Below are positions 7,193 to 20,443 of a DNA stretch of 32,127 nt, one piece after another. Both the position numbers and the translations under genes were made by a program. The notes under the pieces were generated by a model that was not told the origin of the DNA, made no database searches, and saw nothing but the letters and a program-made list of their open reading frames with translations. Positions within the stretch are counted from its first letter, which is position 1, and every line of letters begins with the position of its first letter. This DNA comes from an uncultured Prevotellaceae bacterium (lineage in GTDB: Bacteria > Bacteroidota > Bacteroidia > Bacteroidales > Bacteroidaceae), in NCBI GenBank assembly GCA_902789415.1, contig CADAOD010000040.1, positions 1 through 32,127 of the forward strand, in the 5' to 3' direction.

Positions 7193-9203
7193 ATGCAAAA
7201 AGGTAACATCGGGGTTACAACCGAGAACATTTTCCCCGTCATCAAAAAGTTTCTCTATTCTGATCACGAGATATTCCTCCGCGAAATGGTTTCGAACGCC
7301 GTTGACGCTACACAGAAGTTGAAGACACTCGCCGCTCAGGGCGAATACAAGCAGGAGCTTGGCGACCTGACCGTACGTGTAAAACTGGATACCGACAAAG
7401 GTACCATCACCATCAGCGACCACGGTATCGGCATGACCGAGGAGGAAATCGACAAGTATATCAACCAGATTGCTTTCTCGGGCGTTACCGACTTCCTTGA
7501 GAAGTATAAGGACAATGCCAACAACATCATCGGTCACTTCGGACTTGGTTTCTACTCAAGCTTCATGGTTGCCAAGAAGGTTGAGATTATCACCAAGAGC
7601 TGGAAGGAAGGTTCGTGACGATGCAGAGCGCGAGCAGCACGGATCGGACATCATCCTGTACGTAGATGATGACTGCAAGGAGTTCCTCGATAAGTTCAAG
7701 CTCGAGGGATTGCTCAACAAGTACTGCAAGTTCATGGCTGTACCCGTGGCCTTTGGTAAGAAGACCGAGTGGAAGGACGGCAAGCAGGTTGATACCGATG
7801 AGGACAACATCATCAACAGCGTAGAGCCCCTGTGGACCAAGACTCCAAGCACCTTGAAGGACGAGGACTACAAGAGCTTCTATCGCACACTCTACCCCAT
7901 GAGCGACGAGCCTCTGTTCTGGATTCACCTGAACGTAGACTACCCATTCAATCTCACAGGTATCCTCTACTTCCCCAAAATCAAAAATAACATCGAGCTG
8001 CAGAAGAACAAGATTCAGTTGTATTGCAACCAGGTATTCGTGACCGACCAGGTAGAGGGTATCGTACCAGAATTCCTCACCCTGCTTCATGGTGTGATCG
8101 ACTCACCTGATATTCCTCTGAACGTATCACGTTCGTACCTGCAGAGCGACCGCGAGGTAAAGAAGATCTCTACCTATATCACTAAGAAGGTTGCCGACCG
8201 CCTGAAGGCCATCTTTAACGAGAACCGCAAGGAGTACGAGGAGAAGTGGGACGACCTGAAGCTCTTTATCAACTACGGTATCCTGAGCGAGGACGGTTTC
8301 TACGATCGCGCCAAGGAGTTTGCACTCTTCAAGGATACTGAGGGTAAGTACTTTACCTTCGACGAGTATAAGACGCTGATTGAGGCCAACCAGAAGGATA
8401 AGGACGACCAGCTGGTATATCTGTACGCTACCGACAAGGAGGAGCAGTACAGCTACATCAAGGGCGCCCAGGACAAGGGTTACAGCGTGCTGCTGCTCGA
8501 CGGACAGCTTGATGTTCCAACCATCCAGACGCTGGAGCAGAAGTTTGAGAAGAGTCGCTTCACACGCGTCGACAGCGATATCATCGACCGCCTGATTGTA
8601 AAGAGCGATGCACCTAAGAACAACCTGAGCGAGGATCAGAGTGACAATTTGTCAGCCGTATTCCGCACTCAGCTGCCAAAGATTGAGCATACCGAGTTTA
8701 TGGTTCAGGTAGATGCACTTGGTGCCGAGGCCCGTCCTGTAGTTATTACTCAGAACGAGTACATGCGCCGTATGAAGGAGATGAGCCGATTCCAGCCTGG
8801 CATGAGCTTCTATGGTCAGATGCCCGACTCGTTCAATCTGGTTCTGAACTCAGATCACCCATTGGTAAAGAAGGTGCTTGATGAGAGCAGCGCTGCTACC
8901 GAAGAGGCTCTGAAGCCTATCGTAGCCGAGCTGAAGGGTCAGGAGGCACGTTTGGCTGCCATCCGCGCTCAGCAGGATAAGAAGAAGTACGACGAGCTGA
9001 CACAGGAGGATAAGGACCAGAAAGCCGAGGCTGAGAAGGCCGTACAGGAGCAGAAAGACAAGAAGCAAGCTGTAATTGCCGAATATGCCAAGGGCAACTC
9101 GGTAGTTCATCAGCTGATTGACCTGGCTCTGCTGCAGAACGGCATGCTTAAAGGTGAGGCACTCGATGCATTCCTGAAGCGTTCAGTTGATCTGATTAAA
9201 TAA
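7193..9203 (+). pseudogene. htpG: Molecular chaperone HtpG (Hsp90), interrupted by a frameshifting internal deletion
   Basis: Two pieces together make a Bacteroidales HtpG. The first (7193 to about 7612; local stop TGA at 7616-7618) holds the GHKL ATPase N-domain: FLREMVSNAVDA (Glu31, Asn35), ISDHGIGM (Asp76) and the lid GHFGLGF (114-120). The second, in the +1 frame from about 7605 to 9203, runs from RDDAEREQHGSDIILYVDDD through the middle domain (YPMSDEPLFWIHLNVDYPF, LNVSRSYLQSD) to the C-terminal dimerisation domain. Compared with family members remembered from Bacteroides, about 16-17 residues (the WTCDGSPEFT region, about 50 nt) are missing at the join. As written, the gene yields a 141-aa stub. 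A terminator follows. Real mutation or assembly error cannot be told apart here. Confidence 0.88.
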
Positions 9204-9220: not shown

Positions 9221-9247
9221 AAGGCTCCCAATCGGGAGCCTTTTTTT
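9221..9247. terminator. Bidirectional terminator between htpG and the sensor kinase gene
   Basis: AAGGCTCCC (9221-9229) pairs perfectly with GGGAGCCTT (9234-9242) around a 4-nt loop. There is a T7 run on the plus strand and a T-rich tail on the minus strand. The genes converge, and the plus-strand T-run overlaps the kinase stop codon at 9246-9248. Confidence 0.92.
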
Positions 9248-11153
9248 ATTTAGGTAATTCGAGCGTTACACGACAACCTTGATGATAATCGGCATCGAAA
9301 ACCAGATCGCCACCCAAGCTCTTTGCATGGCGTTTGGCCAATGGGAGACCTAGGCCGAGACCTTCGGACAGATCGCCCTCGCGGGTAAATGGCTCGAACA
9401 GAAGCTCTTTCTTGTCGTCGGGCAATCCTGGACCTACATCCTCTACCGTATAGCTAACGGTATTATCGGTATCGGTAATACTCAACTTGATATGCTGACC
9501 ATCTGAATATTTCGCAGCATTATAAAGCAACTCACGCAGCGTACGCATCAGGTAAATATGATTAGTAACGATGCAAAGCGTATCGGATACGGCTGAAGAG
9601 AGCTCGATATTGGCATCGGGGAAGTGGGCGTGCGTATAAAGGATACACTCGTGGGCCAACGCATTAACCGACTCCTCGTCCTGTTTCTTACACTTCAAGG
9701 CCTCGTTGGCATCGCTCTCCGAAGCATCGAACAGCATCAGCACCATACTGTTAAGATTGATGGCGTTGCTCTTCATCATACTTGAGATATTGGCCAGTTC
9801 CTCCTCGCCTATCATATCCTTATTGTTGCTGCTCTCGCGTAGCATGCTGGCAAAACCGGTAATCACATTTAATGGCGAACGCATGTGTTGGGCCACCTGC
9901 TGCATGAACTGGTTCTTTTTCTTCACGTTCTCCTGAGCCTGCAGGACATCCTGCTGCAGCGCTTCGTTACGCAGTCGCGCCTCGTCGACACGCTGACGCA
10001 AACGGCCCATCTTGTCGTTCAAAGCCATCTGCATCTGAGCAAAACTATTCTGTAGTCGCGCTATCACACCTTTACCCAAGTTGACAGGAATCTGCTCGTC
10101 ATATCGCCCATCAGAGATATCCTTCGTCATATCAAGCAAATCGTTCAATGGACTGACGGTTTGTTTTACGATACGATTACTTAACCACATAATGGCCAGC
10201 AATCCTATCACAATCAAGGCTATGATAACGTATCCCATTCTGTGGTAACTACGCATCAGCTGGTTATCGGGACAAACCCAAGCCAGACTCCAGTTGGTAC
10301 CTTCGACAGGCTCGTAACATACATGATAGAGCTGGTTACCTATATGCACATGCATAGAGCCGCGCTTTCCAGCCGTCATCTCATAACTTAATGATATCAA
10401 ATCCTGATTCGCATTGGGGTCGACATCCGTATAAAGCGTTTTACGGAACAAACGGGTGGTGTCGGGATGAATCAGATAACGTCCATCACCACCTATCAGC
10501 ACATAATACGAATGATCGTAAGTATTCTCATCTTCGTTAATGAGCTTAGCCAATCTGCTGAATGAGAAGTCGACGGTAACAACACCTATCATACGACCAT
10601 TATTCTGGCGCAGGGGTTTGCAATAGGTAGCGATTGCCTGGCGATAGTCGATCGTACTTTCGGTATGTTCAATAAACGGATCAACCCAGCATGATTTACC
10701 TGTTTCTACCGGTTTGGTATAGCTAAGTTTTTCCAGATAGTCGTATTCCGGTTCGCAGTAAGTAGCCAAAGTGTCACCCGTTCTTTTGGTGTAAACCGAG
10801 AATTTCTCGCCATACTGCGGAAACATGTTCGGCAAAGCATATACGGAACAACTCATCACATTGCCATTCAGGCGCACAATACGGTTAGACACAGCCTGAA
10901 TAGCTTGAGGCTCAAAGTTTTCCTCGAGCATCCATACATTAGCATCAGCTGCCGTTTCAATGGTTTGCATATAGTTCTGAACGCGCTGCAAGGTGGTGTT
11001 CAGTAAACTCTGCGAACTCTCCATAGCCTCATGATGTATGAGATAACGCGACTGCAGAAAAAAGATGCCTAACGCCACTACAAAGATTGGGATAGCCAGC
11101 AGCATGATGCCCAAGCTAAGCTCTCTCGACAAACTACGACGTACCTTAATCAT
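9246..11153 (-). CDS. Double-Cache sensor histidine kinase
   Basis: 635 aa. TM1 lies at about residues 13-33, a periplasmic double-Cache domain at about 40-300 (GDGRYLIHPD motif at 222-231), TM2 at about 307-326, HAMP at about 327-380 and a coiled coil at about 380-415. The DHp domain has H-box QHMRSPLNV (His423). The ATPase domain has N-box ELLYNAAKYSDG (Asn545), EDVGPGLP (Asp572), FEPF and GLGLGLPLA (598-606). All catalytic motifs are present, so it should autophosphorylate. Start: ATG at 11153 has AAGGAGG six nt upstream and overlaps the previous gene's stop (ATGATTAA), giving translational coupling; a further in-frame ATG lies at 11180. It is the last gene of a three-sensor operon with no response regulator next to it. 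Confidence 0.9.
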   Translation of the reverse strand: MIKVRRSLSRELSLGIMLLAIPIFVVALGIFFLQSRYLIHHEAMESSQSLLNTTLQRVQNYMQTIETAADANVWMLEENFEPQAIQAVSNRIVRLNGNVMSCSVYALPNMFPQYGEKFSVYTKRTGDTLATYCEPEYDYLEKLSYTKPVETGKSCWVDPFIEHTESTIDYRQAIATYCKPLRQNNGRMIGVVTVDFSFSRLAKLINEDENTYDHSYYVLIGGDGRYLIHPDTTRLFRKTLYTDVDPNANQDLISLSYEMTAGKRGSMHVHIGNQLYHVCYEPVEGTNWSLAWVCPDNQLMRSYHRMGYVIIALIVIGLLAIMWLSNRIVKQTVSPLNDLLDMTKDISDGRYDEQIPVNLGKGVIARLQNSFAQMQMALNDKMGRLRQRVDEARLRNEALQQDVLQAQENVKKKNQFMQQVAQHMRSPLNVITGFASMLRESSNNKDMIGEEELANISSMMKSNAINLNSMVLMLFDASESDANEALKCKKQDEESVNALAHECILYTHAHFPDANIELSSAVSDTLCIVTNHIYLMRTLRELLYNAAKYSDGQHIKLSITDTDNTVSYTVEDVGPGLPDDKKELLFEPFTREGDLSEGLGLGLPLAKRHAKSLGGDLVFDADYHQGCRVTLELPK

Positions 11154-12627
11154 GGTTGGCCTCCTTTCCTGTTTCGGCATCAGTAAAATGAGCCATATGA
11201 TTCAACAGTTCAACCAGCATATCGCTTTTACGCTCGATATTATCTACCTGCTTATCTATTTCGTCTTTACTAATATCATGATAGTTGTTACACAACGTTG
11301 TGACGCTACGGTCGATACTCTCGGCTGGTACAGCCATCTGGTTTGTGATATAGTGCAGGAACGAAGTTTTCATCCTATCGTTCTCTTCTATCCTACCATA
11401 AGCAGCACGTAACTCATCGCTATGTTCATGCAACTGCATCGTTTCGTTCTCCAAATCAGCTGTCTGCTCCTTCAATCTGTCCTGCATCTTACGTAAACGG
11501 TTCTGCAAATGTCCTACCTCATCTTCGCGATTGGTGGCAGGTACCGATTCATCGTAGTTTCCAGCGGCTATACGCTGGGTTAATTGAGTAAGCAGACTGA
11601 GAGGCTTGAGTTCGTGACGAACAAGCCAGCCACAAAGCAGGAAGAATAACAACAAGCCTACAATGGTGATAGCAACCACCAGATAAAGCAGTTTGTTGTG
11701 CACACTATGTATATCGGCATCAGGATAAACCACACCTACACTCCAGTCTAACTGCCAATCAGAGCGCCCCTCCCACTCTACACGTTTAAATGGCTTATAG
11801 AACACGCTCCACGATTCGCCATTCATATAGAATTTCTTCATACCGCTCTGTCCCGACAGCATGGCTTCGATGGCATCATGATAAGTATGGTCGGCACCTT
11901 CCACCATTTTGGTCAATATACTTTCGGATTTCAGCATATCCATATCAGGATGCACTATCAGCGATCCGCTCTTGGCCAACAGCAAACTATAGCCTCGCTC
12001 TGAGGGTTTTGCTGCCAATACAATCTTAGACAACTGACTGATGGAAACATCGACAGCAATCACACCCACACGCTGGCCACTCTTATCGCTGAATGGCAGA
12101 CAGAAATTTACCAGCGGCTCATTCTCGGTATCCTCACCTTTCAATGGGTCGGTCCAGCCTATCCATCCATTGTTCATAGGATCTTTATACCAAGTCTGCT
12201 CGGTATAAGGACGATCGGTAAAAGTATCGGTAGTTACCAAATCGCTCTTGATATCGGTAGTAAAGGCACGGCGATGCACATAGGCCATAAACAGATCCTT
12301 ACCCGGGAAATAGCCAGGCTTAAACGCAATGGCACATCCCACAATATTTGGATTGCTTTCAACAAGCTCCCGGCAATACACATACATGCGGTCGGGCTCA
12401 TCAAGATGCTCCATCAGATCGCAATACATATTACCTGTACTCTGCTCTACGCTCAACAGGATATTGTCGATTGTTTGCGCAGTACCCTCAAGCGTTAGTT
12501 CAGCATTGCGCATAGCCTCGTTCTTCAGCGCCTTGTGCGAGAAGTAGAACAGGATGCCCAGCGATACCGCTAACAACAGCAACGTTTGGCCTGCTATCAG
12601 TATATTAAGCTTATACTTTTTCTGCAT
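11146..12627 (-). CDS. Double-Cache/HAMP membrane sensor with degenerate phosphoacceptor domain and no ATPase domain
   Basis: 493 aa. TM1 is at about residues 9-30, the periplasmic double-Cache domain at about 40-305 (WYKDP at 146-150, GSLIVHPD at 221-228), TM2 at about 313-334, HAMP at about 335-388, a coiled coil at about 380-420 and a DHp-like helix pair at about 420-485. The expected H-box FxxxxSHELRTPL reads FLHYITNQMAVPAESI: the phosphoacceptor His is Asn429 and the next Glu is Gln430. No N, G1 or G2 box follows; the protein ends at HFTDAETGKEANHD. It cannot be a normal kinase. It could dimerise with, titrate or allosterically tune the downstream kinase (inference). It starts 2 nt after the upstream gene's stop and overlaps the downstream kinase start by 8 nt. 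Confidence 0.88.
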   Translation of the reverse strand: MQKKYKLNILIAGQTLLLLAVSLGILFYFSHKALKNEAMRNAELTLEGTAQTIDNILLSVEQSTGNMYCDLMEHLDEPDRMYVYCRELVESNPNIVGCAIAFKPGYFPGKDLFMAYVHRRAFTTDIKSDLVTTDTFTDRPYTEQTWYKDPMNNGWIGWTDPLKGEDTENEPLVNFCLPFSDKSGQRVGVIAVDVSISQLSKIVLAAKPSERGYSLLLAKSGSLIVHPDMDMLKSESILTKMVEGADHTYHDAIEAMLSGQSGMKKFYMNGESWSVFYKPFKRVEWEGRSDWQLDWSVGVVYPDADIHSVHNKLLYLVVAITIVGLLLFFLLCGWLVRHELKPLSLLTQLTQRIAAGNYDESVPATNREDEVGHLQNRLRKMQDRLKEQTADLENETMQLHEHSDELRAAYGRIEENDRMKTSFLHYITNQMAVPAESIDRSVTTLCNNYHDISKDEIDKQVDNIERKSDMLVELLNHMAHFTDAETGKEANHD

Positions 12628-12629
12628 AA

Positions 12630-13598
12630 CTACATACGCTTACAAATAAAACCTACAGCCACAATGCCTATAATGCACAAAAATAAGAGTGTCCATCGCA
12701 TACATCTGAAGGGTTTCGATACATCAGATATAGGAGCTACAACAGCCACCGACCAGTCAATACCATCAATCGGGCCGTAGTAAACCAACGAAGGCTCACC
12801 ATCCACTTCCATCTCAATCATACCAGATTGCTGCTGCTCAAGATTCTTCAACATCTCAGGATCTTTAAACACCGTTTTCTTACCCTCGGGATGCACAATG
12901 CAAGAGCCATCATGATCAACAACCATCGAGAAGAAAGTGAAATCGCGCATCAAATGGTATTTGTTTACCTGCTGGTCGTTACGACAAGCATCGTCGATAC
13001 GCTGCAAGGCCTTAGTAAGCCACTCGAAAGTGATATCAGCACCACACACGCAGGCCAGTTTACCATCGGCTGTATAAACGGGCTTTACGAAAGTACAATA
13101 ATGACCACTAATATAGGTTCCATCATAGTAATAATAAGGCTCCGACCAGAAACTGGTCTTGATATCCTTGGCATGCTTGTACCAGTCCGACTGGGTGTAG
13201 TCATGACGGGCCGAACCTACCATACTAATTTCGAAATCCGAGCTATCAGAATGGTGTATATAGGGCTCGAACCATTGTCCCTTGCTGGGAAAGAAATTAG
13301 GTTCGAATGCAGCAAAATAACCACGCACATCGGGATTCAGGTTCGACTCCTCTTCGAGGGCTTGTACTACCGACTCGGGGCTATCCATGTGTTTCTCAAC
13401 CTCATTAAACACATTGATTGCACTCATCTCCATACCCCTGATGGTTTTATTAAGCTGTGCAGCTATTACACTTTGCAAGCCTGCATAACGTACATTAGTT
13501 TCGGCACGCATTGCCTCACGAAATGCCCAATACGATACACCTGTAACTAACAGTATAACTATTGATGCTGCCAGCAATACATACCATTTCTTTTTCAT
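12630..13598 (-). CDS. Double-Cache membrane sensor without a cytoplasmic output domain
   Basis: 322 aa. TM1 is at about residues 6-26, a periplasmic double-Cache-like domain at about 30-295, and TM2 at about 298-317, after which the protein ends within a few residues (CKRM). Landmarks shared with the two downstream sensors: FEPNFFPSKG (compare FKPGYFPGK), SDWYKHA (compare TWYKDP), ADGKLACVCGADI and SCIVHPEGK. It therefore looks like a paralogue that kept only the sensing half. It is the first gene of the operon, with a good promoter 30 nt upstream; only 2 nt separate its TAG from the next ATG. Possible roles are a hetero-oligomer partner or ligand buffer for the kinase (inference). Confidence 0.85.
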   Translation of the reverse strand: MKKKWYVLLAASIVILLVTGVSYWAFREAMRAETNVRYAGLQSVIAAQLNKTIRGMEMSAINVFNEVEKHMDSPESVVQALEEESNLNPDVRGYFAAFEPNFFPSKGQWFEPYIHHSDSSDFEISMVGSARHDYTQSDWYKHAKDIKTSFWSEPYYYYDGTYISGHYCTFVKPVYTADGKLACVCGADITFEWLTKALQRIDDACRNDQQVNKYHLMRDFTFFSMVVDHDGSCIVHPEGKKTVFKDPEMLKNLEQQQSGMIEMEVDGEPSLVYYGPIDGIDWSVAVVAPISDVSKPFRCMRWTLLFLCIIGIVAVGFICKRM

Positions 13599-13627
13599 AT
13601 CTATCTTCTTTAGGTTCTTTTATTCTG

Positions 13628-13658
13628 CAAATATAGATATTTTTTCTATGTATTCAAA
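13628..13658 (-). promoter_or_regulatory. Promoter of the three-sensor operon
   Basis: On the minus strand, TTTG (13658-13655), exactly 19 nt, TATATTTG (13635-13628). The leader to the ATG at 13598 is about 22 nt. Confidence 0.8.
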
Positions 13659-13699: not shown

Positions 13700-14404
13700 C
13701 TATAGCGCTTTCAATTTGTTGCGGTAAGCCTTGCGCAACTTACGTACAGCCTTATCGCGTATCTGGCGCACACGCTCGCGCTTGATATCCATATCCTCGG
13801 CTATCTCGGCCATTGTTTCGTGCTCCTGATTAATACCAAAGAAAGCGTTGATAATACGGCGTTCGCGTGCATCGAGTGTACCCAAGGCAAACTCGATGGC
13901 ATCCTCGATAGCTTCGGAGTGTACACGCTCATCGGCCAATGGTGCATCTTTATTTACCAAAACCGACAGCAGACTCATATTGGTACGATGACCCAAAGGT
14001 GCATCAACCGATACAGCCTGCGATTGCTGGCGAGCCACCTCCTGCTTAACGTCCTTGGGCACCTGATACAGTCCACCCTGCTGGTCGATAGCCTTCTCGA
14101 TAGCCTGGCGGATATATACCACAGCAAAGTTAACAAAGCGCACGCCTTTGCTGGCATCGAACTTGGCAGCAGCCTTCATCAGGCCGATATTACCCTCGCT
14201 CACCAGGTCTTCCATATCCACGCCCTTACCTTTGTACTGGCGAGCGATGGTTACCACAAACTTCAGGTTAGCCTCGATCAACTTCGACAGGGCACGTTCG
14301 TCGCCCTTAGCTATACGTTCGGCCAGTTGGCGTTCTTCATCGTTGGTTAGCAACTGCTCACGTCCTATCTCATCTAAATATCTGTTTAATGCTGAATCTT
14401 CCAT
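13700..14404 (-). CDS. RpoD-like sigma-70 factor lacking region 3 (234 aa)
   Basis: Region 1.2 is SALNRYLDEIGREQLL (residues 4-19). Region 2 spans about 44-108 (NLKFVVTIARQY, DLVSEGNIGLMKAAAKFD, FAVVYIRQAI). A linker follows with the region-3.2-like SVDAPLG and SLLSVLVNKDAP (132-155). Region 4 spans about 174-229 (TLDARERRIINAFFGI, then the HTH around MAEIAEDMDIKRERVRQI). The major RpoD of this phylum is about 286 aa with a full helical region 3; here region 2 passes almost directly to the 3.2 linker. The aromatic pair usual before IRQ in region 2.4 (WW) is VY. I read it as an alternative, group-2-like sigma factor rather than the housekeeping one. The mRNA leader is about 12 nt. Confidence 0.85.
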   Translation of the reverse strand: MEDSALNRYLDEIGREQLLTNDEERQLAERIAKGDERALSKLIEANLKFVVTIARQYKGKGVDMEDLVSEGNIGLMKAAAKFDASKGVRFVNFAVVYIRQAIEKAIDQQGGLYQVPKDVKQEVARQQSQAVSVDAPLGHRTNMSLLSVLVNKDAPLADERVHSEAIEDAIEFALGTLDARERRIINAFFGINQEHETMAEIAEDMDIKRERVRQIRDKAVRKLRKAYRNKLKAL

Positions 14405-14491: not shown

Positions 14492-14568
14492 TGGTGATTC
14501 CGGCGGGATTCAAACCCACAACCTTCTGATCCGTAGTCAGATGCTCTATTCAGTTGAGCTACGGAACC
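14492..14568 (-). tRNA. tRNA-Arg (anticodon ACG), second copy, CCA encoded
   Basis: On the minus strand, a complete cloverleaf runs from G1 at 14568 to the discriminator A at 14495, with CCA encoded at 14494-14492. The acceptor is GGTTCCG/CGGAATC (one G-U pair). The D-arm is GCTCAACTGAATAGAGC, the anticodon stem-loop TCTGA-CTACGGA-TCAGA with anticodon ACG, and the T-arm contains GGTTTGAATCC. A34 is normally edited to inosine by TadA, so the tRNA reads CGU/CGC/CGA. Its body is identical to the copy upstream. Confidence 0.95.
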
Positions 14569-14598
14569 ATTGTTCCTTTATTTTTGCAACCGTTTTTG

Positions 14599-14672
14599 TG
14601 ATTCCGGCGGGATTCAAACCCACAACCTTCTGATCCGTAGTCAGATGCTCTATTCAGTTGAGCTACGGAACC
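14599..14672 (-). tRNA. tRNA-Arg (anticodon ACG), first copy, CCA not encoded
   Basis: The same 74-nt cloverleaf runs from 14672 to 14599 on the minus strand. The three bases after the discriminator read CAA instead of CCA, so this copy needs CCA-adding enzyme. It is transcribed first from the promoter just upstream and is separated from the second copy by about 30 nt. Confidence 0.95.
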
Positions 14673-17995: not shown

Positions 17996-20329
17996 TTACT
18001 TATTTACCACTTTCTTCTTATTAATAATGTATATGCCCTTAGGCAGACTGTTCAGCTCAGAAGCCTTACCCAGTTTAACACCACGCATATCGTAAACGTC
18101 GGCATCAGGCGTTTCGAGCTGGATATTCTGGATGCCAGTTTCGCTGGTAAGCTTATAAACGCAAGTACTTGTAAGGTAACCATTTTCGCCATTTACCCAC
18201 TCATATTCACCCTTATTCAGCATCATCACATAGAATGCATAACTGGTATCGGTATCCAAGCCTTCGAACTGGAATGGCACCTCGCCCGTTTCGCCCACCT
18301 TTATTTCGGCGGTATTGGTTTGTACAGCTGTGCTGTAGTACATGTTGTCGGAACTGTTTTGCTGCAACAGCCAGATACGCACGCCACCATAATAGGTTTC
18401 GGTACTGTTATTCTTAATCTTAGCAACCCCCTTCAAAGCGGTACCTGATACCACATGATCGACACTTGCACCCTCGACATCAAATGTTACATCAACCACC
18501 AAATCAAATACTGGTGCAGCAGCCACGTTAACCTCTACGCTATCAAGCGCAACAGCATCTTTATAATCGCTGGCCGATGTTGAGAAATAGAACTTATAAG
18601 TACCCTCGCGCTGCGGAATGTAGCTGATAGTAACATCGCCCGTTTCGCCTGCATCGAGATTAGAACCAATACCAGCCAACAGAACCGTCTTGGTAGCATC
18701 CTCGTTACTCCACAGGAATACAGGCGCATTAGCAAAAGAATTCTTATCGGTAAGATTGAGTTTGAATGTAATTGGGCGACCAACCATATTATCGGTACTT
18801 ACCTCTTTAGAATTGAGCAAGAACTTAGTATCGCCACTATATACTACACCGCCATGAGGAGTTACCTGCATAGAGAGTCCGTTGATAACGATAGTAGCAT
18901 AACAATCCATACCTTGGATTTGGAGCACAAAGTCGGTCTGCCCAGTTTCGCGACAAATAGGGCGCAACTGATAGGTGCCATCAACCAGATCACCACCTAT
19001 GGTATAGCTATTATTATAATAGCCTCCTTTTCCTGCAGGAATATCTTCGGAGGTAGTTCCTAACATCTTTACCAACTTATCGCCCTGATAAAGTGCCAAA
19101 CCAATATCGTACTTAAGATCCTTGTCGGCAAGACTAAACATCAGGCATTGAGCCATAAACTGCTTGAAGTTAGCAGTTGTGCTGGTACGACTTAACGTAA
19201 CCGTGTTACTTTGGTTGTTAATGGTAAAGTCCATCGCGAGCAATCGCTCAACCGTCATATTAGTAGTGGTAGATGGGGCTATACCAACGATAACCGTCTG
19301 ATCGATATTATAACCGGCAGAGCCCGAAGTACCGCCAGCACCCTGGTTATCAGGATTCATGAGCGACAACATAAAGAAGCCATCGCTTAATCCACCCCAT
19401 CCCCAGTTAACATGATAAAGACCTGCGCCATCATAGCCATCAACCACAAATGCATGTCCTGCCTGAACACCAGCGCCCGAGTCGTCGATATCAATAGCCT
19501 GAGCTGAATATAACACAGGTTTGGCATTGGCCAGATTATCATAAATGAGCGCATCCCACTCGGTAGCTGTATAGTTTGTGCGCGACGAATATTCGGTAGA
19601 TAAAGCATAACTAAATCTATTACGCAAAGCCTCGCATGCATACAAATCACTTGTATACGAACCATCCGAGCTGTAATTCATGCCAACAGCAGCACCAGCA
19701 TCGGCCATCAACTTGGCTACAGCATAAGCAGACTCGGTAGAATCGTTTGAAGCATATTCGGTTTTCATCTTACTCCACTCGTAGGTGGCAGGCCATTGGT
19801 GGTAGTACATCACCTGCGCCATAGCCGTAGCCACACAACCAGTTAATGATGTTTTACCAGTTGTATTATCCTTTGGACAAGTAAGATTATATGGGCCATA
19901 CTGATTCCACTTGGTTTTAACCAATGCCTTGATGGCATCGTGTGTGGGCACCGTACCTCGGGTAATAGCCTGATTGCTGCTTACAGCCTGCTGATATTTA
20001 GAAAGCATTACCTTCAGCGCTTCGGGTGCTGTATTCATATCAAACACGCCGTTATCGCTATATCCCAACACAGAAGGTGTACGATCGTCGGCACTTACGA
20101 TAACAAACGAGTTATCGGCATTAAACACATATATGCCGGCATTATCACCATCGGCAACACCTGTTACGGCACGAGTCAACTCTCCGCTGGCGGCACGGGT
20201 TACGTGCGGCATTTTACTTTGCAAGAAATCGCTGGCAATCTTACGGGCCGACTGCTCGTCAACAGGTGCTGCTATCGTCAGCAAAACGCTGAATAGCACC
20301 AGGTAGGTTGAGAGTAGATATTTTTTCAT
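17996..20329 (-). CDS. Secreted C10 family (streptopain/interpain-like) cysteine protease
   Basis: 777 aa. The signal peptide is about residues 1-20 (MKKYLLSTYLVLFSVLLTIA), followed by a Spi/inhibitor-like prodomain at about 21-125 and the papain-like catalytic domain at about 128-360. The nucleophile Cys165 is in TSLTGCVATAM, His292 in QAGHAFVVDGYDG, and HVNWGWGG completes the active site. Beta-sandwich repeats occupy about 375-740. The C-terminal tail (VYDMRGVKLGK ... LPKGIYIINKKKVV) resembles secretion/anchoring tails of Prevotella surface proteins. The family includes interpain A, an anti-complement factor. The ATG at 20329 is chosen because it begins the signal peptide and follows a good promoter; longer in-frame starts cross that promoter. 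NfeD follows after 7 nt. Confidence 0.93.
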   Translation of the reverse strand: MKKYLLSTYLVLFSVLLTIAAPVDEQSARKIASDFLQSKMPHVTRAASGELTRAVTGVADGDNAGIYVFNADNSFVIVSADDRTPSVLGYSDNGVFDMNTAPEALKVMLSKYQQAVSSNQAITRGTVPTHDAIKALVKTKWNQYGPYNLTCPKDNTTGKTSLTGCVATAMAQVMYYHQWPATYEWSKMKTEYASNDSTESAYAVAKLMADAGAAVGMNYSSDGSYTSDLYACEALRNRFSYALSTEYSSRTNYTATEWDALIYDNLANAKPVLYSAQAIDIDDSGAGVQAGHAFVVDGYDGAGLYHVNWGWGGLSDGFFMLSLMNPDNQGAGGTSGSAGYNIDQTVIVGIAPSTTTNMTVERLLAMDFTINNQSNTVTLSRTSTTANFKQFMAQCLMFSLADKDLKYDIGLALYQGDKLVKMLGTTSEDIPAGKGGYYNNSYTIGGDLVDGTYQLRPICRETGQTDFVLQIQGMDCYATIVINGLSMQVTPHGGVVYSGDTKFLLNSKEVSTDNMVGRPITFKLNLTDKNSFANAPVFLWSNEDATKTVLLAGIGSNLDAGETGDVTISYIPQREGTYKFYFSTSASDYKDAVALDSVEVNVAAAPVFDLVVDVTFDVEGASVDHVVSGTALKGVAKIKNNSTETYYGGVRIWLLQQNSSDNMYYSTAVQTNTAEIKVGETGEVPFQFEGLDTDTSYAFYVMMLNKGEYEWVNGENGYLTSTCVYKLTSETGIQNIQLETPDADVYDMRGVKLGKASELNSLPKGIYIINKKKVVNK

Positions 20330-20358
20330 AATCGTAACAATTTGATGGTTTAATAGTG

Positions 20359-20389
20359 CAAAAATAGACATTTTTGTCGAATTAGCAAA
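20359..20389 (-). promoter_or_regulatory. Promoter of the C10 protease gene
   Basis: On the minus strand, TTTG (20389-20386), 19 nt, TATTTTTG (20366-20359). A 7-bp inverted repeat CAAAAAT/ATTTTTG (20359-20365, 20370-20376) overlaps the -7 box. Confidence 0.78.
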
Positions 20390-20443
20390 GAAAAAACGAA
20401 TTATTAGCAAATAAAAGTGCATTTTTTCCGTTATTATGTTATA

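What the first reader, a model, noticed from the sequence alone, without database searches (positions are those of the whole stretch)
9246..13658. Tiered three-gene double-Cache sensor operon: sensor only, sensor plus dead phosphoacceptor, full kinase
Three adjacent, tightly coupled genes (gaps of 2 nt and -8 nt, one promoter) encode related double-Cache membrane proteins with graded output: none (322 aa), HAMP + coiled coil + degenerate DHp without ATPase domain (493 aa), and a complete kinase (635 aa). All share the HP(D/E) landmark in the distal Cache domain and F.P..FP in the proximal one (FP.K/FPGK in the two shorter proteins). The order from simplest to complete, with overlaps, suggests made-to-ratio subunits of one signalling complex in which two partners modulate one kinase. 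No response regulator is nearby. Family knowledge covers each domain; I know of no described system with this arrangement.
Basis: partly seen in the sequence, partly recalled or inferred. Interest (0 to 1): 0.78.

Follow-up and report, generated by a model that had tools for sequence, protein, structure and literature searches.

The report
Three-part bacterial sensor with disarmed kinase
Three neighbouring genes in a rumen-type bacterium appear to build one membrane sensor in which even the 'kinase' part has lost the amino acid that kinases of its family phosphorylate, and that kinase gene starts with a ribosome-binding signal which these bacteria are thought not to use.

Summary
The three genes are real and their order is conserved: 34 A-B-C loci in 33 genomes of the genus. 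A (322 aa) is a double-Cache sensor without output. B (493 aa) is Cache-HAMP plus a two-helix DHp region without phosphoacceptor, ending before any ATPase domain. C (635 aa) is Cache-HAMP-DHp-ATPase.

Corrections: C is not a complete kinase; its phosphoacceptor position is Q (AQHMRSPLN). The His is gone in 17 of 34 A-B-C kinases and in 0 of 25 B-C pairs without A, while ATP-site motifs remain in 17 of 17. B-C is the older module, inherited as a unit (mirror-tree r 0.93). A joined later and has the best-conserved ligand domain (identity 0.72 against 0.54 and 0.50).

New: C begins with an extended Shine-Dalgarno, predicted pairing at or below -13 kcal/mol in 32 of 34 A-B-C kinases, against 0 of 58 B starts, 0 of 61 A starts and 3 of 483 other genes. 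Such signals had no effect in Prevotella bryantii (PMC3155529).

Best reading: a heteromeric receptor whose kinase subunit is an ATP-binding pseudokinase, or phosphorylates elsewhere. Hetero-oligomerisation, ligand and output are untested.

The parts
13628..13658 (-). promoter-like sequence TTTG-N19-TATATTTG, about 30 nt before the A start codon
   Evidence: 12 of 61 A genes and 40 of 589 other genes match the same strict pattern, so suggestive only
12630..13598 (-). gene A: membrane-anchored double-Cache protein, no HAMP, no output; best-conserved ligand domain of the three
   Evidence: AlphaFold2 model pLDDT 89.5; Foldseek best match 3lib, a dCache sensor
11146..12627 (-). gene B: dCache + HAMP + coiled coil + two-helix DHp region without phosphoacceptor (ITNQMAVP), ending before any ATPase domain
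   Evidence: profile comparison with HAMP-DHp of sister kinases E 2e-42 over 171 columns; model pLDDT 79.5 with helices 370-447 and 454-486
9246..11153 (-). gene C: dCache + HAMP + HisKA + HATPase_c; phosphoacceptor His replaced by Q (AQHMRSPLN), ATP-site boxes intact
11146..11153 (-). 8-nt overlap of the end of B with the start of C
   Evidence: the same overlap in 39 of 59 B/C junctions after start refinement
11160..11169 (-). extended Shine-Dalgarno GGAAAGGAGG inside the last codons of B, 6 nt before the C start codon; predicted pairing with the 16S tail -16.3 kcal/mol

Best explanation
A, B and C are subunits of one membrane receptor complex. B and C, the older pair, dimerise through HAMP and DHp helices. 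A is a ligand-binding co-receptor added in front of them. Ligand binding by A (strictly conserved distal Cache pocket) is passed through the Cache and transmembrane helices to the B-C heterodimer. In this lineage neither B nor C keeps a phosphoacceptor at the usual place, so the complex cannot pass phosphate by the textbook His-Asp route on its own. C most likely works as an ATP-binding pseudokinase: its conserved ATPase domain sets the state of the complex, and the output is made on a partner in trans. The first candidate partner is a His-bearing paralogous kinase of the same cell (in this genome the B-C pair on contig 9, with MTHQIRTPLN). Shown here by sequence: gene order, co-inheritance, loss of His, retention of the ATP site, purifying selection, conserved distal domain of A. 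Inferred: heterodimerisation, direction of signalling, identity of the partner.
For: 34 A-B-C loci in 33 genomes. B and C trees mirror each other: 50 pairs, r 0.93, 0 of 2000 permutations as high, 33 of 47 splits shared. Of the 54 of 59 B proteins that aligned, 53 lack His at the phosphoacceptor position. The B tail is homologous to HAMP plus DHp of C-type kinases. His lost in 17 of 34 A-B-C kinases, kept in 25 of 25 pairs without A (4 of these 25 are C-like proteins lacking, or cut before, the ATPase domain). N, G1 and G2 boxes matched in 17 of 17 His-less kinases, with patterns that I wrote after seeing the sequences. dN/dS (NG86; dS near saturation) for the C ATPase part, window against L071, 0.07 at 75% identity. 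Distal Cache identity within 24 triples: A 0.72, B 0.54, C 0.50; positions at 95% or more: 50 of 116, 18 of 115, 14 of 115. A also overlaps by 4 nt a SpoIIE phosphatase gene that has no Cache domain, as expected of a portable sensor subunit. 14 of 17 genomes with a His-less C carry a His-bearing full-length paralogue among the 30 loci read.
Against: No interaction, ligand or activity has been measured, and no multimer prediction could be run. His loss maps to two sub-clades of one clade (at least 4 changes; two rows inside them have His), so the link between A and His loss is not independent (2 independent pairs only). 17 of 34 A-B-C kinases still have His, so the same architecture can be an ordinary kinase elsewhere. 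In the window a His sits one residue later and could conceivably be used. In one operon with a His-less C (L080) it is B that has a His at that position (THQM). Across 24 triples the proximal Cache of C (0.58) is a little better conserved than its ATPase part (0.55), and the DHp is the least conserved (0.47). Three of 17 genomes showed no His-bearing full-length paralogue among the loci read, and there was no control with genomes whose C has His.
Confidence: 0.55

Rival explanations
1. C is still an active kinase: its ATPase domain phosphorylates a His in another DHp protein (trans-acting donor, as proposed for FasB on FasC) or the His one residue later in its own helix, and A and B only tune it.
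For: ATP-site boxes in 17 of 17 His-less kinases; His-bearing paralogues in 14 of 17 such genomes; in L080 B itself has the His that C lacks; FasB/FasC precedent (PMC12675982, abstract and sections 2.6 and 3 part 1 read). Some relatives are the mirror image: a C-like protein with HEIRTPLN or HDVRTPLN but no ATPase domain (L056, L064).
Against: The shifted His is not conserved: the next residue is H in 3, N in 2 and Q in 11 of the 16 His-less triple kinases. The acidic residue reported as needed for kinase activity (PMC3510030, abstract read) is Q in most of the family, although HQ kinases of other phyla are recalled as active.
Confidence: 0.25
2. C with its DHp and ATPase domain has become an input reader of a response regulator or kinase state, like DivL, rather than an output kinase.
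For: Loss of the phosphoacceptor with a kept ATPase domain; DivL is a repurposed kinase whose catalytic domain senses a phosphorylated regulator (PMC4211667, start of abstract in a listing only).
Against: No regulator gene was recognised by eye from the first 35 residues of the 31 genes listed directly after C (no domain search was run on them), and none among the window proteins put to Pfam. Co-variation with a regulator was not tested.
Confidence: 0.12
3. Ordinary paralogue decay: the complex is a leftover sensor array in which C is losing function.
For: His loss is recurrent; L046 has C in two ORFs, L092 and L102 have B in two ORFs, L086 has one ORF joining the B and C Cache parts, and L034 has a shortened A.
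Against: Whole-gene dN/dS 0.05-0.15 wherever dS was finite in five comparisons among the window and L071-L078 (dS near saturation, infinite for some; a sixth, near-identical pair L082/L084 gave 0.47 at dS 0.01 for A); conserved junction, Shine-Dalgarno and ATP site over many species.
Confidence: 0.08

Closest known systems
FasB-FasC of group A Streptococcus (PMC12675982)
   Same: Two kinase-like genes of one locus whose products interact as a heterodimer; the ATPase domain of FasC is dispensable, so the authors propose it as a pseudokinase.
   Different: There the partner keeps the phosphoacceptor His and a cognate regulator (FasA) is in the locus; no third sensor-only gene is described. Here B lacks the His in 53 of 54 rows, C of this lineage has lost it, and no regulator is linked.
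GacS-RetS of Pseudomonas (recalled; PMC12148439 seen in a search listing only)
   Same: A kinase-like membrane protein acting on another kinase by heterodimerisation.
   Different: RetS keeps its kinase-type domains and is not encoded beside gacS (recalled); B here is a truncated, His-less protein encoded next to its kinase and co-inherited with it.
ChrS pseudokinase of Corynebacterium (PMC9491836, abstract read)
   Same: A kinase without a working ATPase domain heterodimerises with a paralogous kinase and changes output.
   Different: Laboratory-evolved mutant of one strain; B is a natural, conserved family.
DivL of Caulobacter (PMC4211667, listing only)
   Same: Kinase-derived protein repurposed so that its catalytic part is not an output kinase; lacks the usual His (recalled).
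   Different: Single protein; not an operon of graded Cache proteins.
SiaA-type dCache-HAMP-PP2C receptors with NMT1/THI5 binding protein and STAS
   Same: Same Cache-HAMP family; a binding protein is the first gene, as A is here.
   Different: Output is a PP2C-type phosphatase with a STAS protein, not a kinase-derived pair.
rpsU extended Shine-Dalgarno autoregulation in Bacteroidia (PMC9976891: abstract, section 32, section 34 part 1 and passages read)
   Same: Pairing energy of the same size (-14 to -21 there, -16.3 here) in a lineage whose ribosomes hide the anti-Shine-Dalgarno.
   Different: Here a receptor kinase gene inside an overlapping junction, in the order Bacteroidales, in which the paper says no member meets its rpsU criteria.

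Membership tests
HisKA histidine kinase (gene C) | HisKA and HATPase_c domains | tested here: met
   PF00512 28.9 bits (cut-off 26.9), PF02518 69.3 bits (cut-off 26.4)
HisKA histidine kinase (gene C) | phosphoacceptor His in H-E/D-x-x-T/N | tested here: not met
   Q-H-M-R-S in the window; 17 of 34 A-B-C kinases lack His at that position
HisKA histidine kinase (gene C) | N, G1 and G2 boxes of the ATP site | tested here: met
   present in 17 of 17 His-less kinases including the window
HisKA histidine kinase (gene C) | autophosphorylation and phosphotransfer | not testable with these tools
   needs biochemistry
dCache_1 sensor (A, B, C) | double PDC fold between two transmembrane helices | tested here: met
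   Pfam in all three (A scores 29.1 for dCache_1, below its cut-off of 45, but 60.7 for MCP-like_PDC_1, cut-off 27); A modelled at pLDDT 89.5, Foldseek best 3lib E 5.6e-15; B modelled at 79.5; C not modelled. The L040 A orthologue lacks the second helix
dCache_1AA amino-acid sensor (A) | Arg that binds the ligand carboxylate (R126 of PctA) | tested here: inconclusive
   placing W139-Y140 of A on W128-Y129 of PctA by eye puts S137 at the Arg position; no alignment to PctA itself was made
FasBC-like heterodimeric kinase | two co-encoded kinase-like partners that interact | tested here: inconclusive
   co-encoding and co-evolution shown; interaction not testable here
FasBC-like heterodimeric kinase | one partner supplies the phosphoacceptor His | tested here: not met
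   neither B nor C in the window has it at the usual position; met in 25 of 25 pairs and 17 of 34 triples through C
Shine-Dalgarno-led gene | extended complementarity to the 16S tail at normal spacing | tested here: met
   -16.3 kcal/mol, 6-nt spacing; the 16S tail was read from three sister genomes because no match was found in this assembly

The most novel reading that the evidence does not exclude
Kinase C is made by a special translation route. In a lineage whose ribosomes hide the anti-Shine-Dalgarno, the conserved 9-10-base Shine-Dalgarno at the B/C overlap lets C be translated mainly by ribosomes with an exposed 16S tail (for example lacking bS21 or bS18), or by reinitiating ribosomes held by the tail, so that the ratio of kinase to its two partner receptors, and thereby the sensor's state, reports the condition of the ribosome. 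The complex would be a receptor that integrates an outside ligand (through A) with translation status.
Probability: 0.2. Interest if true: 0.9.

Novelty: new variant of a known kind. Interest (0 to 1): 0.72.

Why it matters
It shows a large natural family of co-encoded, co-inherited kinase-less partners (B) for histidine kinases in one genus, with a third sensor-only subunit in part of it and repeated loss of the phosphoacceptor while the ATP site is kept: a test bed for how receptor complexes can signal without their own phosphotransfer. Independently, the kinase gene gives a conserved extended Shine-Dalgarno outside ribosomal protein genes in bacteria reported not to use them, which makes the open question of what such signals do in Bacteroidota directly testable with a short natural leader.

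Tried and rejected
Rejected: that the three-gene order is peculiar to this strain (34 loci). That A is a truncated copy of B or C (separate clade). That the His one residue later in C is a conserved substitute (Q, N or H there). That the conserved G-K-E tail of B is kept for the peptide alone: AAG and GAG are used in every -8 junction with the Shine-Dalgarno, although B genes use AAG for 859 of 1395 Lys and GAG for 1221 of 1912 Glu, and L050 reads the same RNA motif in another frame; against this, L113 keeps G-K-E in other codons without the Shine-Dalgarno. That the Shine-Dalgarno is simply a feature of overlapping genes here (40 of 50 overlapping B/C junctions against 2 of 77 others, after identical upstream stretches were dropped; one of the 2 is a broken B-C pair). 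That it is hidden in a hairpin (mean pairing probability 0.52 against 0.49 for the whole stretch, 40 junctions). That bS21 is shortened in genomes with this operon: of the rows printed (a capped list; 238 of 299 genomes matched), those of G242, G293, G300 and G316, which carry A-B or A-B-C, reach position 53.

Led nowhere or limited: amino-acid and amine motif comparison (no alignment to PctA itself); the VIA-align library was absent; the model of B came late and was not put to a fold search. Literature searches for a described system of this kind gave none (open-licence library only).

Dropped or uneven rows: 5 of 59 B proteins did not align to the DHp profile. The kinase tree used 55 of 59 C rows (the 4 CA-less or cut C-like proteins left out) and did not leave out the His-box columns. 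The mirror tree used 50 of 59 pairs, the region identities 24 of 33 triples. The dN/dS script stopped with an error; only printed pairs are used. In the Cache tree the B proteins of L036 and L053 fall outside the B clade. Pairs without A come from loci picked from the first search, triples mainly from the A search, so the groups are not random samples. Junction lengths depend on my ORF caller's start choice. 127 of 398 is a hand count of the rows with best E below 1e-45.
Full report
THE OBSERVATION. The window holds three minus-strand genes, A 12630-13598, B 11146-12627 and C 9246-11153, with a 2-nt gap and an 8-nt overlap. A promoter-like TTTG-N19-TATATTTG lies at 13628-13658. Pfam gives Cache-type domains in all three, HAMP in B and C, HisKA and HATPase_c only in C; the three are related by pairwise BLASTP.

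HOW CONSERVED. The first search in 60 relatives showed many tandem B-C pairs, several per genome. After taking 40 stretches and 60 more around A orthologues, 59 B-C pairs could be read; 33 have A just upstream on the same strand (in L092 and L102 B is itself in two ORFs), and L113, where A was found but its ORF was masked by my gene caller, makes 34 loci in 33 genomes. The commonest junctions by my gene caller are A/B -17 nt and B/C -8 nt. About half of the 60 A loci are not followed by B-C: some end at a contig edge, about ten have the phosphatase-type gene described below, others have A alone. A orthologues form a distinct family with a gap in E-value to other Cache proteins. Among named genomes a scan for A found 44 loci, and a crude motif scan saw A, B and kinase together in 17 of 43 of them, among them Xylanibacter ruminicola Ga6B6 (A 98% identical, same C motif). 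Best E below 1e-45 for the B tail profile occurs in 127 of 398 genus genomes (hand count). At E 1e-27 only the window's own genome matched among 295 sampled genomes of the order and 247 of the phylum. The system is thus a lineage-specific, much-duplicated family.

WHAT B IS. A profile of 30 B tails aligns with the HAMP-DHp part of 16 sister kinases over 171 columns, E 2e-42, and the model of B (pLDDT 79.5) shows two cytoplasmic helices, 370-447 and 454-486, after HAMP. B ends where the ATPase domain would start. Of 54 alignable B proteins (of 59), 53 have no His at the phosphoacceptor position, mostly N, D or T; the exception is L080, THQM. B and C trees mirror each other (50 pairs, r 0.93, 0 of 2000 permutations as high, 33 of 47 splits shared), so pairs are inherited and duplicated as a unit. 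Overlapping gene pairs are reported to encode often subunits of heteromeric complexes (PMC10666635, title and start of abstract in the listing).

WHAT C IS. The C proteins of B-C pairs without A read (S/T/Y/M/A)H(Q/E/D/R)(I/V)RTPLN: 25 of 25 keep His and T; 4 of these 25 (L033, L056, L058, L064) lack, or are cut before, the ATPase domain. The residue after His is Q in 22 of the 26 rows of that group (L113 included there), where HisKA kinases usually have an acid reported to be needed for kinase but not phosphatase activity (PMC3510030, abstract). In A-B-C operons 17 of 34 kinases have lost the His: in the window and its nearest relatives to Q (AQHMRSPLN, AQQMRMPLN, AQNMRMPLN), elsewhere to R, P, Y or N. 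The tree puts all 34 A-B-C kinases in one clade of 35 rows, with one pair (L031) inside, and His loss in two sub-clades, at least 4 changes in all. In all 17 His-less kinases the N, G1 and G2 boxes of the ATP site are intact. Between the window and L071 the ATPase part is the most conserved part of C (75% identity, dN/dS 0.07 with dS near saturation); over 24 triples it is second to the proximal Cache (0.55 and 0.58). This looks like a kept ATP-binding domain without its usual target rather than decay. No other His of the DHp helices is conserved in the window clade of 11 rows.

WHAT A IS. In the Cache tree A forms its own clade, apart from the B and C of the triples, and it stands in front of the older B-C pair. 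Within 24 triples its distal Cache domain is far better conserved (identity 0.72, 50 of 116 positions at 95% or more) than those of B (0.54, 18 of 115) and C (0.50, 14 of 115). A therefore most likely fixes the ligand. The model of A is a good dCache (pLDDT 89.5), nearest to the archaeal sensor 3lib. The A of L040 lacks the second transmembrane helix. In a second context A, of about 294 aa, is followed by a 611-667-aa gene in nine loci and a cut one in a tenth (L118, L120, L121, L122, L124, L126-L130), eight of the ten with a 4-nt overlap; the two put to Pfam are SpoIIE phosphatases without a Cache domain. In a third context an NMT1/THI5 binding protein takes the first place before B-C (three loci by clustering, Pfam on one). 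The first gene of these operons is thus an exchangeable extracytoplasmic sensor. Four loci carry five graded proteins: a transmembrane protein with an ATPase domain, Cache-HAMP, A, B, C (L108, L109, L110, L114).

THE START OF C. The last codons of B hold GGAAAGGAGG, complementary to the 16S tail, 6 nt before the C start codon. Predicted pairing at or below -13 kcal/mol occurs in 32 of 34 A-B-C kinases and 9 of 25 pair kinases, against 0 of 58 B starts, 0 of 61 A starts, 3 of 483 other genes (one of them a broken C) and 1 of 544 mock positions. Among overlapping junctions an SD core is in 40 of 50 B/C and 2 of 77 others. The whole genome has 19 matches of AAAGGAGG-N4-8-ATG, against 4 for the reversed control; what the other 18 are was not worked out. 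In Prevotella bryantii the level of a reporter did not follow Shine-Dalgarno length (PMC3155529, abstract and section 13). Bacteroidia ribosomes hide the anti-Shine-Dalgarno; pairing of this strength is described there as distinctive of rpsU, with no Bacteroidales meeting the criteria (PMC9976891, abstract, section 32 and passages). Why a receptor kinase should have one is open: either ribosomes ending B use it to restart, or ribosomes with an exposed 16S tail prefer it. Both can be tested at the bench.

SURROUNDINGS. Upstream in the window and in L071 and L073 lies a 234-aa sigma-70 factor with regions 1.2, 2 and 4; downstream, convergent, is htpG. No regulator gene was seen nearby. In 8 of 31 triples with a listed downstream gene, C is followed by a secreted, probably outer-membrane protein; the one put to Pfam matched nothing. 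The window lacks it.

MECHANISM. Shown: order, co-inheritance, loss of His with kept ATP site, conserved distal domain of A, unusual C start. Inferred: A binds the signal, B-C is the transmembrane heterodimer, C in this lineage is an ATP-binding pseudokinase acting on a partner in trans. 14 of 17 genomes with a His-less C have a His-bearing full-length paralogue among the 30 loci read, without a control set; in this genome it is the pair on contig 9. Precedents for single steps exist (FasBC, ChrS, GacS-RetS, DivL); I found none for the combination.

VERDICT. Observation partly confirmed, interpretation partly supported, and the more surprising facts were missed: the 'full kinase' is disarmed, and its gene starts with a signal that its lineage is thought not to use.

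Noticed in passing
window 11160-11169 (minus): Extended Shine-Dalgarno at the B/C overlap in an SD-blind lineage; 41 of 59 B/C junctions reach -13 kcal/mol or below.
   Followed up: yes
window 7193-9203 (+): htpG is split over two frames: residues 1-141 and 157-684 of the L071 homologue match in different frames. May be a real lesion or an assembly error.
   Followed up: partly
genome contig 39, 23800-23913 (+), locus L197: rpsU (bS21) of this genome matches its family only to position 39 of 58, while the relatives printed match to 51-53. Notable because bS21 helps to hide the anti-Shine-Dalgarno (PMC9976891); may be an assembly error.
   Followed up: partly
window 13700-14404 (minus): Sigma-70 family factor of 234 aa with regions 1.2, 2 and 4 but no significant region 3 match, conserved upstream of A in L071 and L073.
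   Followed up: partly
window 14492-14568 and 14598-14672 (minus): Two tandem tRNA-Arg(acg) genes directly upstream of the sigma factor gene.
   Followed up: no
L075 2943-3596 and downstream of C in L076, L077, L082, L084, L096, L102, L105: Recurrent fourth gene after C: a secreted, probably outer-membrane-barrel protein (AQIPYYAGTVG..GYTS..RPGIN); the L075 copy has no Pfam match.
   Followed up: partly
L056 5867-7393 (minus), L064 6283-7764 (+), L033 6616-8097 (+): Mirror-image pairs: a C-like protein with His kept (HEIRTPLN, HDVRTPLN, HRIRTPLN) but ending at about 500 aa without a detected ATPase domain (Pfam on L056 and L064), next to a short His-less B-like protein of 221-341 aa and a GH9 cellulase gene (Pfam on L033 and L064, by clustering in L056). 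L058 looks alike but is cut by the contig end.
   Followed up: partly
L108, L109, L110, L114; L106: Five graded proteins in a row: a transmembrane protein with an ATPase domain and weak TPR matches (Pfam on the L106 copy), Cache-HAMP, Cache only, Cache-HAMP-pseudoDHp, Cache-HAMP-DHp-ATPase; in L106 the two extra genes follow C.
   Followed up: partly
L080: The only aligned B protein with a His at the phosphoacceptor position (THQM) lies beside a C that has lost it (TQQM): a possible swap of roles.
   Followed up: no
L118, L120, L121, L124, L126, L128, L129, L130: A of about 294 aa overlaps by 4 nt a phosphatase-type gene; SpoIIE (PP2C) shown by Pfam for L121 and L128.
   Followed up: partly
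window 17999-20422 (minus): Peptidase C10 family protein with Spi inhibitor prodomain next to a TonB-dependent-receptor-like gene on the other strand.
   Followed up: no
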